A model generated the notes under the pieces. That model saw only the letters and a program-made list of their open reading frames with translations, was not told where the DNA came from and did not search any database. The translations under genes were made by a program, and so were the position numbers. A stretch of 64,000 nt of DNA from Pseudomonadota bacterium (GTDB lineage Bacteria > Desulfobacterota > Desulfobulbia > Desulfobulbales > Desulfocapsaceae), in NCBI GenBank assembly GCA_018821985.1, contig JAHJKP010000012.1:62001-126000 (forward strand). Direction: 5' to 3'. Positions within the stretch are counted from its first letter, which is position 1, and each line of letters begins with the position of its first letter. Shown one piece after another: positions 53,837 through 59,739 of the stretch.

Positions 53837-54436
53837 TTACACTTTTATTTCTTTTTCTGCGGCAATCAGCTGGTGTTGGATCTCCTTGAAATTTTCAGCT
53901 GAAATTTCACTATCTGGGGTGTGAGATACACGTAGATCATGAAGACCATCCACCGCCTGCTGGAGATAATCCCGGGTTGTTGTAATTTTTTTTTCCAAAT
54001 AAGCTGACATGATATTAAAATCATGTGCCACCATGTGCAGGGGATCAATTCGACGAGAATGAATTACTTGAGGAATCAAATGCCCACTCATTGTATCAAG
54101 ATGGGTGGAAAATCGTCGTAATGATCCGGAAACAAGCCTTAAATGAAAAAATATAAAGACGATAGTCAGAAGAGTAAGTAGTGCCATAAAAGACAGATTA
54201 ATCCAGAGAAGAGCTGGCCCTAGTAGTTCTCCGGAACTTAAAGCTGATACATGCGATGAATAAAGTTGTTTTTCAACAATTTTATTTAAAACCTGATAGG
54301 AGACAGTAGCGATAATCCCAGTCGACAACAACATAATGCCAATAAACAGCCCGACAAATTTCAACTGAAAGGTCCTATCAATTAGATAAATACTTCGTTT
54401 GAACTTTTGCCCCACAATCTTCTGTTCCTTTATCAA
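53837..54436 (-). CDS. Two-helix HAMP-like membrane protein downstream of the seven-haem cytochrome
   Basis: A 199-residue protein. Membrane helices are at about 27-49 (FVGLFIGIMLLSTGIIATVS) and 75-100 (WINLSFMALLTLLTIVFIFF), followed by a HAMP-like region (RLVSGSLRRFSTHLDTMSGH) and a C-terminal helix; no output domain. The start is TTG with AAGG nearby. It resembles the protein at 55348-55941 in size and layout, and the two enclose the cytochrome gene. They may anchor or sense the state of that cytochrome; this is inference from position. Confidence 0.65.
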   Translation of the reverse strand: MIKEQKIVGQKFKRSIYLIDRTFQLKFVGLFIGIMLLSTGIIATVSYQVLNKIVEKQLYSSHVSALSSGELLGPALLWINLSFMALLTLLTIVFIFFHLRLVSGSLRRFSTHLDTMSGHLIPQVIHSRRIDPLHMVAHDFNIMSAYLEKKITTTRDYLQQAVDGLHDLRVSHTPDSEISAENFKEIQHQLIAAEKEIKV

Positions 54437-54476
54437 AAATATTATCCCTTAAACCTCTTCCTGCTTTCGTCTTCTT

Positions 54477-55358
54477 TTATCTCTTATGACAAGTCAGACA
54501 TAAGCGACTGCCATAGTTTGTGACCGTGAGCAGGTTTTCCTCTCTGGCGTACAAGTTATGACAAGAGACACATTCCACCTTGCCATCCGGCAAAAGAATA
54601 GTTCGCGGGAGCGATGAGATCGCATTTATTCCCCGCGGATCACGTCTGAAGGCATCATTGTAGTCAATGCCGATGGGGTGACTGGAGGCCCCTCCATAAT
54701 TTTGACCTTGACCTTGATGATCCCACACCCCACTACTGCGTTGCATACCATCCACACCTTTCGTCCCACTATCACTGGCAATGGTACCATCATGACAACT
54801 AAGACACACAGAGGATGAAGCTCCCAGTAACTCTCCAGTATCAAACTCACTGAATTGTTTAGTGTGGGCAACATCAGTGGCCAGGGCGTGATTCAGTCCT
54901 TTCTGGTTCAGAAAACCCTGTTGATGGCATTCAAAGCAGAAATCCTTTCCTTTTGAATCTCGCCGTAAATACATATCATTGCCGCCAGCGTAAACACCAT
55001 CCTTCTGATGATGCATATAGTGACAGGTGGTACAGGTCATTTGTCCTCTCCAGTCCAAATACATATCCACGGGGAGCGGAAAGGTTGGTTTCATCCCGAT
55101 AGGATGAGACATTGACAGGGTCATGTCTGTATGACAGCCCAGGCAAATTGTTTCAATATCGGCAAGGAAAAGGTTCGTTCCACTTTCTTTACTGGTAATC
55201 GGTACAGGGTCACTGAGATGGCAGTCATTGCAGGCGCTCATTTTATCAATGTGTGGATTAGGGCCATCTGCAACAGCAATACAGAGCCACCAACCAGCAC
55301 TACATAATACAATAAACAACAAGAATGCTTTATTATGGTATTTGTCTCTACCATTCAT
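54477..55358 (-). CDS. Seven-haem periplasmic c-type cytochrome
   Basis: A 293-residue exported cytochrome. The signal helix is AFLLFIVLCSAGWWLCIAVA. Seven CxxCH sites are present: CNDCH, CLGCH, CTTCH, CFECH, CLSCH, CVSCH and CLTCH, the last five residues from the end. The spacing, with paired motifs and HPIG segments (SMSHPIGMKPTFPLP and ASSHPIGIDYND), is that of the doubled-CxxCH family. The ATG was chosen over a GTG three codons upstream because AGG lies eight or nine bases before it. It overlaps the upstream HAMP-like gene by eleven bases, so the two are translationally coupled. The redox partner is not known. Confidence 0.88.
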   Translation of the reverse strand: MNGRDKYHNKAFLLFIVLCSAGWWLCIAVADGPNPHIDKMSACNDCHLSDPVPITSKESGTNLFLADIETICLGCHTDMTLSMSHPIGMKPTFPLPVDMYLDWRGQMTCTTCHYMHHQKDGVYAGGNDMYLRRDSKGKDFCFECHQQGFLNQKGLNHALATDVAHTKQFSEFDTGELLGASSSVCLSCHDGTIASDSGTKGVDGMQRSSGVWDHQGQGQNYGGASSHPIGIDYNDAFRRDPRGINAISSLPRTILLPDGKVECVSCHNLYAREENLLTVTNYGSRLCLTCHKR

Positions 55359-55941
55359 TGTTATCACCTGTTCTCTTCATCTGCTCCAATATCTTATGAA
55401 GACGTGCCTCACAGTCTTGAAGTCTGCGTCCCGTTTCATTTGAATCTTGCTTGGAACATTCTTCAGCTAACAGCTCGACCTCACACCTGATCGCCACTAT
55501 TTCCTTGTTTATCCGAAGAAAACGATCCCTGACTTGTTGCAAATAGGAATTAAATATTGCCGGAATGGTCTGGAGTTGGTCAGCACTCCTGAAACGGGTA
55601 ACAATGGTAAGATCTCCGGTTGCAATTTGCAAAAAAGACTTACGCAGTCGATACAATGGGCCGGCAATTTTATGGGTCCAGAGAATCGATGCAAACCAGA
55701 TAAGAAGAGTAAAAAAAAGAGACTGAGCCATTACAGAAAAGATTATTCCGTAACGCATCTCCCGGTTCAGTTGTTCAAGGGTTGACAGAACGTCAATATA
55801 TTTATCATCAAATGATTTATCAAAATGTACATAGAACGCGACAGCACTGACCAAAATAATCAAAATAAAACCAAAGCAAATCTTGAAAAGAAAATCTCTT
55901 CTATAGGAAGGCTCAAGAATATTTGTCTGTTTTGGTGTCAT
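55348..55941 (-). CDS. Two-helix HAMP-domain membrane protein upstream of the seven-haem cytochrome
   Basis: A 197-residue protein with membrane helices at about 18-39 (IRFGF-type FKICFGFILIILVSAVAFYV) and 68-90 (SVMAQSLFFTLLIWFASILW), a HAMP segment (THKIAGPLYRLRKSFLQIAT, then GDLT), and a C-terminal coiled coil. There is no kinase, cyclase or chemotaxis output domain. HAMP domains normally relay periplasmic signals; here the periplasmic loop is only about 28 residues. The stop codon lies inside the cytochrome gene start. Confidence 0.72.
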   Translation of the reverse strand: MTPKQTNILEPSYRRDFLFKICFGFILIILVSAVAFYVHFDKSFDDKYIDVLSTLEQLNREMRYGIIFSVMAQSLFFTLLIWFASILWTHKIAGPLYRLRKSFLQIATGDLTIVTRFRSADQLQTIPAIFNSYLQQVRDRFLRINKEIVAIRCEVELLAEECSKQDSNETGRRLQDCEARLHKILEQMKRTGDNNEW

Positions 55942-56374
55942 AATATTTGTTTAAATTATATTTTTTGAAGAATGGTACGAAAACTGACCGCCACTGTTCC
56001 ATATGCAGCATGAATAGAAAAAATATATCTATTACACATAGATGGACAGCTAGTGGAGAGTTTCCTTGGAAAATTATTTTCAGCTGGGCAAATCCCTGGG
56101 ATTACTCAGCCTAAATATTCTACTTTAAGCAATAACCACGAAACTTGTTCTGTCAAATATCGTGAGAAGCTGGATTTTATGACACCCGTTCTCTGGACGG
56201 ACAAATTCCTGAGCAGAACCAGCAGCTACCTCCCTTCCCGCTTCCTGGCTTCCATCCTCTCGCGAAAAACCAAGGTGGAAAAAGGTCGTGCGTCTGCAGG
56301 TAATCAAGGGCAATAAGGGGGGAAAGACTATGTTTTCTGGCGTGATATAAAACCGTGGTGCTTTCTATGATCCA
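55942..56374. other. Gap between the HAMP/cytochrome genes and the DsrE-like gene
   Basis: About 430 bases. It contains a degraded HsdR_N fragment (56221-56315, listed separately) and a short hairpin ATCTAT-tacac-ATAGAT (56027-56043) that on the minus strand is followed by ATATTTTTTC and could end the DsrE-like transcript. A plus-strand open frame at 56053-56316 is not convincing. Confidence 0.4.
56221..56315 (-). pseudogene. Fragment homologous to the 3' part of the HsdR_N gene at 59194-59739
   Basis: The plus-strand string TCCCGCTTCCTGG, the following TTCCATCC, CTCG, GAAA, ACCA and GGTGGAAAAAG align base for base with about 59247-59312 of the intact gene, roughly four of five bases identical over some 65 positions, with one base missing (a frameshift). 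In protein terms it matches LFPTLVFHEGMESKKRERE. The rest of the gene is absent. Confidence 0.65.
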
Positions 56375-56692
56375 TTAAAACGAGAGAACCCGATCACTGT
56401 TGACTATTAATTCATACAAATCATTCTGTTTACCGCGACTGTGATATCCATCCTCCACTCCATGGAGGTCGAGGCACTTGCCTCAGGCCAGCAAAACACC
56501 TTCAGAGAGAGTAAAGAGTTTTGCAAGATCCAAAAGAGGAAATTCTTGAGTAGCGATCTGGCTGTAAGAAACTGAAGGCCCATTAAGAAAAATGGTTACA
56601 TCGTCCATTTTTTCAAGCATGAGATTTCCCAAGCGAAATACATTCCATAAAATTTCCGGATTATCACTACAGGCCACCAAGGTGATATTCAA
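56375..56692 (-). CDS. DsrE-like protein with in-frame TGA, probable selenoprotein
   Basis: A frame of 106 codons read through one TGA at 56483-56485. The first 69 residues (MNITLVACSDNPEILWNVFR, GNLMLEKMDDVTIFLNGPSV, ending TLSEGVLLA) are a DsrE/DsrF-like sulfur-relay fold. After TGA the same frame continues GKCLDLHGVEDGYHSRGKQN and DLYELIVNSDRVLSF, then TAA, which is exactly the C-terminal half expected (DsrE-like proteins usually read ...LLACGxC... and end SDRVxxF). The TGA replaces the first Cys of the CxxC, giving UxxC. A SECIS-like hairpin follows. TTG start with AGGAGG seven bases upstream. The alternative is a recent nonsense mutation. Confidence 0.75.
56452..56468 (-). promoter_or_regulatory. 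SECIS-like hairpin of the DsrE-like gene
   Basis: On the minus strand CCTCCA (56468-56463) and TGGAGG (56457-56452) pair perfectly around the loop TGGAG (56462-56458). The loop begins 20 bases after the in-frame TGA, inside the 16-37 base window of bacterial SECIS elements, and has G at its second and third positions, as those elements need. The stem is short, and CTCCATGGAG offers a competing fold. Confidence 0.55.
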
Positions 56693-58223: not shown

Positions 58224-59093
58224 TCAAAGATTTAGAAACCAATCTTTATCAATTGTTACTTTTTCAACCATCTCTATTTCCACGCCCAAACTCAATTCTT
58301 TTAATTTTTCGGCGAGATTATCACCATCAACTAAATCAATTGGTGGTGCACCATCTCTTGTAGCTTCTTTAATTGCTGCTGGTGTAAATGTACCCGTTGT
58401 AATAAATAGCCCTTTATCTGCTCTGCCTACCATAGCGCCACGAAAATCTCGGATTGCACCTGCCGAAACAGAACCTTGATATTTCTTACATTGAAAAATC
58501 ACATGAAAACTCATTAAGCCATTAATTCTAGCAATACCTTTCCCATCTATTCCGCCATCTCCAGTTTTTCCAGTAACCTCTACTTGAACAAAACCTGATT
58601 CTCTTAATAGTCTTTGTGTGAGGCGTTCGAATGCGTCAGGGCTGATTTCCTGCGTAAGTAGGTGGTGCAACTCTTCCCTCCACGCTTTGGCTTCTTCTGG
58701 GACATCATTTTCTGCTAATTCAATATTGCTTTCAGATTTTTTCTTTTTTTGATTTGGTTCCTTTTTATCTAATTGGCGAACGTACTTCACTACTTCTGGT
58801 GGTATTACGTCTTTTTGTTCTTTGGCCTTCTGTGTCAGAGTCCATATTCCTCTGCTTGAATTCTCAAGGAAGCCATACTTTCTCAAATAAGTTCTTGCCC
58901 ACGCTAACCTATACGCAACCTCGGTTTGATTGCTTTTTTCTGGATTATGAGGAGTTGAAAGGACTTCTTCTTCAATATCTTCTAGCTCTGCGACCTTTTC
59001 ATAAATTTCATCGATTGAGCCAGAGCCACCAAGATGGCTTAGTGCATTCAGTAATGGATTCATCAATGAATCAAATGTTGGTATTTCTTTCAT
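58224..59093 (-). CDS. mrr: Mrr-type restriction endonuclease
   Basis: A 289-residue type IV-like restriction enzyme. The N-terminal Mrr_N winged-helix domain (about 1-95: LLNALSHLGGSGSIDEIYEK, YGFLENSSRGIWTLT) is followed by a Lys-rich linker and the catalytic domain (about 150-270) with ESGFVQVEVTGKTGDGGIDG, the D-QxK nuclease motif FHVIFQCKKYQGSVSA, and IRDFRGAMVGRADKGLFITT. All nuclease residues are present. It is clearly more AT-rich than the genes on either side, which suggests recent acquisition. No methylase is adjacent, as expected for Mrr. Confidence 0.94.
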   Translation of the reverse strand: MKEIPTFDSLMNPLLNALSHLGGSGSIDEIYEKVAELEDIEEEVLSTPHNPEKSNQTEVAYRLAWARTYLRKYGFLENSSRGIWTLTQKAKEQKDVIPPEVVKYVRQLDKKEPNQKKKKSESNIELAENDVPEEAKAWREELHHLLTQEISPDAFERLTQRLLRESGFVQVEVTGKTGDGGIDGKGIARINGLMSFHVIFQCKKYQGSVSAGAIRDFRGAMVGRADKGLFITTGTFTPAAIKEATRDGAPPIDLVDGDNLAEKLKELSLGVEIEMVEKVTIDKDWFLNL

Positions 59094-59193
59094 GTGTTTC
59101 CTTTCAAAACATAATGGCTAAGCTAAGGGGCACGAAGCGCTCCAGTATCATGCACACAGCACATGAAAACTTCAAGAAATCCTGCTAAACCCT

Positions 59194-59739
59194 CTATCTC
59201 CGACAGCAGATCTCCACATCAAAGGTATTGAGAATCCGCAGTTCCCGCTCCCGCTTCTTGGATTCCATCCCCTCGTGAAAGACCAGGGTGGGAAAAAGCT
59301 CACGCGCCTGCCGGCAGTCAGGGATGGCCTCCATGCCGGTTGCCATGACCTGGCCAGTGGCGGTATCGAGCAGCTCCGCGTCCCGGCCGTTGGTGACCAC
59401 GGCCAGCGGGATCTGATAGTCATTTTCCAGCACCCTGGCCGCGGCAATGGCCGAACGTTCGCGGGTGACCAGGGAACCGGGGCCGTAGCGGATAATCATG
59501 AACCGCTTTCCCTCGAGGCTGACCACAAGCTCAATGGTGGAGCGGACAAACTGGCTGGAAAAGAGGGTCTCGATAAAGCGGCGGGGTTCAAGATCCTCCT
59601 TGGCATAGCCCTTTTCCTCAACCATCATGCGGGCCAGCTGCTGCCTGTTCCGCTCGTCATCGGTGTCAGTCAGCTCCTCACCGGTGATATAATCCCGGAA
59701 AGAGCCATAGACGAGATGATGTGATGAGACCCGCAACAT
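59194..59739 (-). CDS. HsdR N-terminal-like domain protein
   Basis: A 181-residue stand-alone protein matching the N-terminal nuclease-like domain of type I restriction R subunits: MMVEEKGYAKEDLEPRRFIE, RFMIIRYGPGSLVTRERSAI and ENDYQIPLAVVTNGRDAELL. Such short HsdR_N proteins are common in Desulfobacterota and have no helicase. The PD-(D/E)xK core looks incomplete, so nuclease activity is doubtful. A frameshifted fragment of the same gene lies 3 kb away. The neighbour mrr is a defence gene, but base composition here matches the host. Confidence 0.8.
   Translation of the reverse strand: MLRVSSHHLVYGSFRDYITGEELTDTDDERNRQQLARMMVEEKGYAKEDLEPRRFIETLFSSQFVRSTIELVVSLEGKRFMIIRYGPGSLVTRERSAIAAARVLENDYQIPLAVVTNGRDAELLDTATGQVMATGMEAIPDCRQARELFPTLVFHEGMESKKRERELRILNTFDVEICCRR

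What the first reader, a model, noticed from the sequence alone, without database searches (positions are those of the whole stretch)
56375..56692. DsrE-like gene with TGA in place of the redox Cys: probable unannotated selenoprotein
An ordinary gene caller sees a 69-residue truncated DsrE-like protein. Reading through the TGA at 56483-56485 restores a full-length protein whose second half (GKCLDLHG ... DLYELIVNSDRVLSF) is just what the family requires. The TGA sits at the first Cys of the LLACGxC motif, giving UxxC, the usual Sec/Cys replacement. A 6-bp hairpin with loop TGGAG begins 20 bases after the TGA, as in bacterial SECIS elements. The gene has a perfect AGGAGG. As I recall, Sec-containing DsrE-like proteins have been reported in marine selenoproteome surveys, and Desulfobacterota are rich in selenoproteins.
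Basis: partly seen in the sequence, partly recalled or inferred. Interest (0 to 1): 0.92.

Follow-up and report, generated by a model that had tools for sequence, protein, structure and literature searches.

The report
DsrE-like selenoprotein gene, recoded UGA
A small bacterial gene that looks cut short by a stop codon almost certainly uses that codon to insert the rare amino acid selenocysteine into a protein of a sulfur-handling family; the kind of protein is already known, and some of its relatives have dropped the partner cysteine usually found next to the selenium.

Summary
The minus-strand gene at 56375-56692 reads through an in-frame TGA (56483-56485) into a 105-residue protein. In surveys of 257 genomes of the order and 395 of the phylum (overlapping), all 45 close homologues (157 bits or more) carry that TGA, and the frame behind it is under purifying selection. 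A hairpin CCUCCAU-GGA-GUGGAGG lies 14 nt after the UGA, fits the published bacterial SECIS model and covaries (24 double-changed cells, 2.8 in shuffles, 0 of 500). selA, selB, selD and a tRNA-Sec are in the same genome. More distant homologues have Cys at the site (14 of 120). The read-through protein is predicted to fold as DsrE (pLDDT 98.3; YchN Z 16.8, TusD 15.0, DsrE 14.6). DsrE-like selenoproteins have been listed since 2005 (PMC1088965), so this is a new member of a known kind. 35 of 99 Sec homologues, not the window's own, lack the second Cys of UxxC. That favours a one-residue sulfur or selenium carrier over a dithiol enzyme, but function is inferred.

The parts
56375..56692 (-). DsrE-like selenoprotein gene, 105 codons plus TAA, TTG start
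56483..56485 (-). UGA codon 70, read as selenocysteine
   Evidence: TGA in 45 of 45 close homologues; Cys in 14 of 120 distinct hits
56452..56468 (-). SECIS hairpin: stem 56468-56462 with 56458-56452, loop GGA 56461-56459
   Evidence: bSECIS constraints in PMC13188914
56700..56705 (-). Shine-Dalgarno AGGAGG, 7 nt before the TTG

Best explanation
The locus encodes a 105-residue DsrE-fold selenoprotein. A SECIS hairpin just after UGA codon 70 recruits SelB with Sec-tRNA-Sec, so the ribosome inserts selenocysteine at the catalytic Cys position of the DsrE fold, at the join of a beta strand and the following helix. Shown: conserved UGA, conserved frame, covarying hairpin, complete set of Sec genes, Cys homologues; DsrE fold by prediction. 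Inferred: decoding as Sec itself (from these), and that the protein works as a small chalcogen carrier, holding sulfane sulfur (or selenium) on the Sec and passing it on, as DsrE and TusD do with one Cys; the second Cys of UxxC, present in the window protein, is optional in the family. Odds: selenoprotein about 0.95, carrier role about 0.5. The confidence below is for the selenoprotein with a DsrE fold, not for the carrier role.
For: All 41 matches of 157 bits or more in 257 genomes of the order, and the 4 further ones in 395 genomes of the phylum, have exactly one internal stop, TGA, at codon 70. dN/dS median 0.149 before and 0.176 after the TGA (0.203 for codons 86-105). SECIS stem: 7 of 7 pairs in 44 of 49 core sequences, 6 or more in 48 of 49; 98.6% of cells paired against 40-60% when slid, 24 double-changed cells against 2.8 shuffled, 0 of 500. 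Codon choice inside the stem departs from the rest of the gene in 39 related sequences: Val79 GTG 38 of 38 (usage 0.31), Leu76 CTC 34 of 39 (0.26), Glu80 GAG 31 of 32 (0.40). selA, selB, selD and tRNA-Sec over the families' cut-offs; the genome's selD has its own in-frame TGA. Fold: pLDDT 98.3, YchN Z 16.8, TusD 15.0, DsrE 14.6; the profile aligns codon 70 with the first Cys of CKTC in YchN. Only column 70 and Arg20 are invariant in the 80-row alignment, Sec written as Cys. Second Cys absent in 35 of 99 Sec sequences. One Cys of DsrE is the sulfur-transfer residue in DsrEFH type II, by mutagenesis (PMC13293266, abstract and passages read).
Against: No protein-level evidence. The single-sequence fold is modest against dinucleotide shuffles (z -1.40, 16 of 200 as good), and with 22 rows alone covariation was not significant (48 of 500). 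Many single homologues are unremarkable against codon shuffles. selB does not discriminate: over cut-off in 38 of 43 genomes with the gene and 38 of 43 without. The window protein alone matches no family model. The gene is patchy (4 of 17 same-genus genomes, some incomplete) and some copies are broken, so it is dispensable. The carrier role rests on analogy; no recognisable tusA, dsrC or dsrFH was found among the ten neighbouring ORFs scanned. The equivalence of Sec70 with DsrE Cys78 was not seen residue by residue, only through YchN and the shared fold.
Confidence: 0.9

Rival explanations
1. Same selenoprotein, but a UxxC thiol-disulfide-type oxidoreductase: Sec attacks a disulfide or oxidant and Cys73 resolves the selenenyl-sulfide.
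For: The window protein and its nearest relatives have UGKC; 64 of 99 Sec sequences keep the Cys; the GOS survey marks DsrE among homologues of thiol oxidoreductases or Trx-like fold proteins (PMC2398784, passages).
Against: 35 of 99 Sec sequences have Leu, Ile, Ala or Ser there while the Sec stays; the best solved relatives are DsrE-type (YchN, TusD, DsrE), not thioredoxins.
Confidence: 0.35
2. TGA is a nonsense mutation or sequencing error in a Cys gene.
For: The ORF list stops at 69 aa; broken copies do exist elsewhere (L107, L174, L175, L176).
Against: Same TGA in 45 of 45 close homologues; purifying selection behind it; covarying hairpin.
Confidence: 0.02
3. UGA mainly terminates: a 69-residue product is the functional one and read-through is regulatory.
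For: Sec insertion competes with termination in general (established knowledge, not tested here).
Against: A helix, strand, helix and final strand of the predicted fold lie after the UGA and are conserved with dN/dS 0.18.
Confidence: 0.03

Closest known systems
DsrE-like selenoproteins (Sargasso Sea 2005, PMC1088965; 'DsrE 1' and 'DsrE 2' of the GOS survey, PMC2398784; Desulfovibrio vulgaris, PMC1794560)
   Same: Sec in a DsrE-type protein at the first position of UxxC, with a bacterial SECIS; GOS 'DsrE 1' likewise had no Pfam domain and no Cys homologue there (passages read)
   Different: None of those sequences was available for comparison; the passages give only UxxC, whereas 35 of 99 Sec sequences here lack that Cys, though not the window protein
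E. coli YchN (1JX7)
   Same: Fold over the whole length (Z 16.8); first Cys of CKTC aligns with codon 70
   Different: Cys in place of Sec; 23% identity
DsrE of DsrEFH, TusD of TusBCD, DsrEFH type II (PMC13293266)
   Same: Fold (Z 14.6 and 15.0); in type II one Cys carries the sulfur
   Different: No recognisable partner subunit genes beside it; Sec instead of Cys
YedF (TIGR03527)
   Same: Its C-terminal DsrE-like domain: 14 of 80 aligned members match at E 0.01 or less
   Different: No N-terminal SirA/TusA domain here; the window protein itself does not match

Membership tests
SECIS-dependent bacterial selenoprotein gene | In-frame UGA with conserved coding sequence behind it | tested here: met
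   45 of 45 close homologues; dN/dS 0.149 and 0.176
SECIS-dependent bacterial selenoprotein gene | bSECIS: loop 3-9 nt, stem 4-16 bp, G in the first two loop bases, 16-37 nt from UGA to loop, MFE -7.5 or lower (PMC13188914, section 5 read) | tested here: met
   loop GGA, 7 bp, 21 nt, -8.7 kcal/mol; covariation
SECIS-dependent bacterial selenoprotein gene | selA, selB, selC, selD in the genome | tested here: met
SECIS-dependent bacterial selenoprotein gene | Cys at the position in homologues | tested here: met
   14 of 120 distinct hits TGC or TGT; highest-scoring L083
SECIS-dependent bacterial selenoprotein gene | Selenium in the protein | not testable with these tools
   needs 75Se labelling or mass spectrometry
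DsrE-fold superfamily | DsrE/DsrF fold with the catalytic residue at the end of a strand before a helix | tested here: met
   predicted model pLDDT 98.3, strand 66-70, helix 71-77; Z 14.6-16.8 to DsrE, TusD, YchN
PF02635 as detected by Pfam | Score over the gathering cut-off (a detection criterion) | tested here: not met
   window protein alone: no PF02635 match; 65 of 80 aligned homologues match at E 0.01 or less, L033 and L019 over cut-off
DsrEFH sulfurtransferase (type I or II, YTD cluster) | dsrF/dsrH or yedE/tusA partners beside it | tested here: not met
   none recognisable by Pfam among ten neighbouring ORFs; nearest are an M48 peptidase, a protein without Pfam match and a multihaem cytochrome. 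Very divergent partners among the three ORFs without a match are not excluded
YedF | N-terminal SirA/TusA domain | tested here: not met
   105-residue single domain

The most novel reading that the evidence does not exclude
A large clade of DsrE-like selenoproteins in Desulfobacterota has kept Sec but dropped the resolving Cys, so a lone selenocysteine acts as a dedicated sulfane-sulfur or selenium carrier: a chalcogen-transfer role for Sec rather than a UxxC redox role.
Probability: 0.3. Interest if true: 0.6.

Novelty: new member of a known kind. Interest (0 to 1): 0.35.

Why it matters
The gene looks like a 69-residue fragment if UGA is read as stop, and the window protein matches no Pfam or NCBIfam model, so a conserved protein of these bacteria is probably overlooked. 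The UxxL, UxxI and UxxA relatives give a natural test of whether Sec in a DsrE fold needs a second thiol, which bears on how DsrE-type proteins work. The covarying SECIS set could also serve as a reference set for bacterial SECIS prediction.

Tried and rejected
Rejected: nonsense mutation or sequencing error. Co-occurrence with selB as a test: uninformative, because selB is near universal in the order (38 of 43 against 38 of 43 over cut-off). In the with-gene set, 3 of the 5 genomes under the cut-off show C-terminal selB pieces (G012, G095, G220); the other two (G162, G229) show none in the listed part, which was capped.

Position near selB: in 9 of the 13 genomes of one genus (g29) that have the gene, it lies tail to tail 0.74-0.82 kb from selB; in the other four the two are on different contigs. 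Not so in the window's genome, where selB is on contig C2 and selC on C6 outside the window. Conserved neighbourhood: a crude ORF clustering of flanks of 3 kb or less, printing only the 25 largest clusters, gave nothing but ORFs over the gene itself and one ORF shared within the genus. In G002 the gene adjoins the same cytochrome block as in the window, but the peptidase block lies 12 kb off. Viral collection: none. Rfam on the gene region: only matches far below cut-off. Promoter scan: nothing above chance on the gene's strand. Structure from 22 close rows was poor (pLDDT 66.7); the 80-row alignment gave 98.3. In one search the ten top rows (Z 13.3-16.8) are DsrE-type or of unknown function, one a designed cage; the next is Z 6.9.

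Rows left out: a script fault lost two hits (L097 TGA, the L136 Cys copy TGC); one search recounts 122 distinct hits, 104 TGA, 14 Cys, 2 without that column, and two odd ones: L117 (CCA, near a contig end, homology starts at codon 71) and L148 (TTG, a degenerate copy misplaced by the alignment). A3 holds 61 of the 103 TGA sequences kept; the 42 others are mostly the UGVC group, whose hairpin has another geometry, plus L095, L082 and L107. A4 holds 80 rows chosen from these. dN/dS: 262 and 272 of 741 pairs were usable. The tree (112 rows of at least 95 residues) is a quick one with few columns; many forks are weak. L096 and L087-type rows near long branches may be misplaced there.

Full report
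What is there. On the minus strand a TTG codon preceded by AGGAGG starts an open frame that meets TGA at codon 70 and, read through, runs to TAA after codon 105. The ORF list stops it at 69 residues.

Conservation of the TGA. A search of genome contigs found 17 loci at 68-95% identity, 17 of 17 with the TGA. In 257 genomes of the order, 64 had a match; the 41 matches of 157 bits or more, in 40 genomes, all have exactly one internal stop, TGA. In 395 genomes of the phylum, 74 had a match, adding four of that class, again all TGA; the two sets overlap. The codon at column 70 was then read in the fetched loci. Of 120 distinct hits with a codon there, 104 are TGA, 14 Cys (10 TGC, 4 TGT), and two are artefacts. 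In the close clade no Cys form was seen; the best-scoring Cys form, L083 (ACGKC, 119.7 bits), belongs to the next tier. Purifying selection is similar before and after the TGA. The Sec/Cys state needs at least five changes on a quick, weakly resolved tree.

SECIS. The hairpin CCUCCAU-GGA-GUGGAGG starts 14 nt after the UGA and satisfies the constraints quoted in PMC13188914 (section 5 read): 7 bp, loop GGA with G first, 21 nt from UGA to loop, -8.7 kcal/mol. On its own it is only moderately unusual against dinucleotide shuffles, though strong against codon shuffles that keep the protein (z -3.16, 0.5% of 200 as stable; the 7-bp stem itself is reached in 2%). Many single homologues are unremarkable by that test (core mean z -1.5). 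The comparative evidence decides it: with 22 rows covariation was not significant (48 of 500), with 61 rows it was (24 double-changed cells against 2.8; 0 of 500; cells count sequences, not events). In seven sequences one C-G pair has become U-A although this changes Glu80 to Lys. Codon choice in the stem is strongly biased. At that fixed place 11 of 13 Cys homologues form only 2-3 of 7 pairs (L122 5, L083 6, perhaps a remnant); this is a weak control, because the UGVC group, which has TGA, forms 3.1 there on average and has its hairpin in another geometry.

Machinery. selB (391 bits), selA (628) and selD (380) are over their cut-offs, and a tRNA-Sec at 58.7 bits (cut-off 47) has UCA in the anticodon loop, by eye; ARAGORN did not report it. 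selD itself has an in-frame TGA, so the genome seems to recode UGA elsewhere too. selB presence does not separate genomes with and without this gene.

Family and fold. The window protein alone matches nothing convincing in Pfam or NCBIfam. Of 80 aligned homologues, 65 match PF02635 at E 0.01 or less, some over the cut-off. AlphaFold2 on the 80-row alignment gives pLDDT 98.3, pTM 0.91 (Sec modelled as Cys). The best solved relatives are YchN, a Sulfolobus DsrE/DsrF-like protein, TusD and DsrE. Residue 70 ends the strand 66-70 before helix 71-77, and the profile aligns it with the first Cys of CKTC in YchN. PF02635 finds four other DsrE-type genes in the genome, none with a stop inside the match.

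How it probably works. Sec at the catalytic position is well supported. Beyond that: DsrE-type proteins move sulfur on one Cys (Cys67 of DsrEFH type II, by mutagenesis; PMC13293266, abstract and passages read). Here 35 of 99 Sec sequences lack the second Cys of UxxC (31 Leu, 2 Ala, 1 Ile, 1 Ser), and in the close clade none has lost Sec. I therefore favour a carrier over a dithiol oxidoreductase, at modest confidence. The window protein itself keeps UGKC, and no recognisable sulfur-transfer partner gene lies next to it.

What is known. DsrE-like selenoproteins with UxxC appear in the Sargasso Sea study (PMC1088965), a 2006 survey including D. vulgaris (PMC1794560), the GOS survey as DsrE 1 (no Pfam, 2 sequences, no Cys homologue) and DsrE 2 (PMC2398784), and reviews (PMC9312934, PMC13188914); passages read. 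Three papers on DsrE in sulfur-cycling bacteria contain no word starting with 'seleno' in the main text (PMC13293266, PMC13047784, PMC12998232). The listings of searches showed no title or abstract start about a DsrE selenoprotein without the second Cys; other full texts were not read, and the library lacks most subscription journals.

Spread. The gene is patchy: 4 of 17 genomes of the window's genus, some of them incomplete. The nearest relatives are named Desulfocapsa sp., Desulfocapsaceae and Desulfobulbaceae MAGs (93-95% identity). Degenerate copies occur.

Noticed in passing
L099, L119, L131, L136: Four genomes carry two DsrE-like genes side by side on one strand, one with Cys and one with TGA (matches 36-193 bases apart), as if a Cys/Sec pair of subunits; two of the Sec copies (L119, L136) have UKKA.
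   Followed up: partly
L020, L032, L066, L067, L068, L070, L071, L072, L074 (genus g29): The Sec-DsrE gene lies tail to tail near selB in 9 of 13 gene-bearing genomes of one genus, with a hydrolase-like ORF between them in L067 (by eye).
   Followed up: partly
L083 1501-1818: A Cys homologue still forms 6 of 7 pairs of the SECIS stem at the same place, perhaps a remnant of Sec to Cys reversion.
   Followed up: partly
L107, L117/L176, L174, L175, L148, L097, L081: Broken or odd copies in other genomes: truncations, a frame offset just before the UGA, and TAG codons (at Trp16 in L081, in the stem region in L097).
   Followed up: partly
window 56057-56309: Stretch just downstream of the gene matches several places in same-genus genomes (about 74-86% identity): a dispersed repeat.
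   Followed up: no
window 58224-59739: Mrr-type restriction endonuclease next to an HSDR_N_2 protein.
   Followed up: no
window 53837-55941: Multihaem cytochrome c between two proteins without Pfam match, on the same strand.
   Followed up: no
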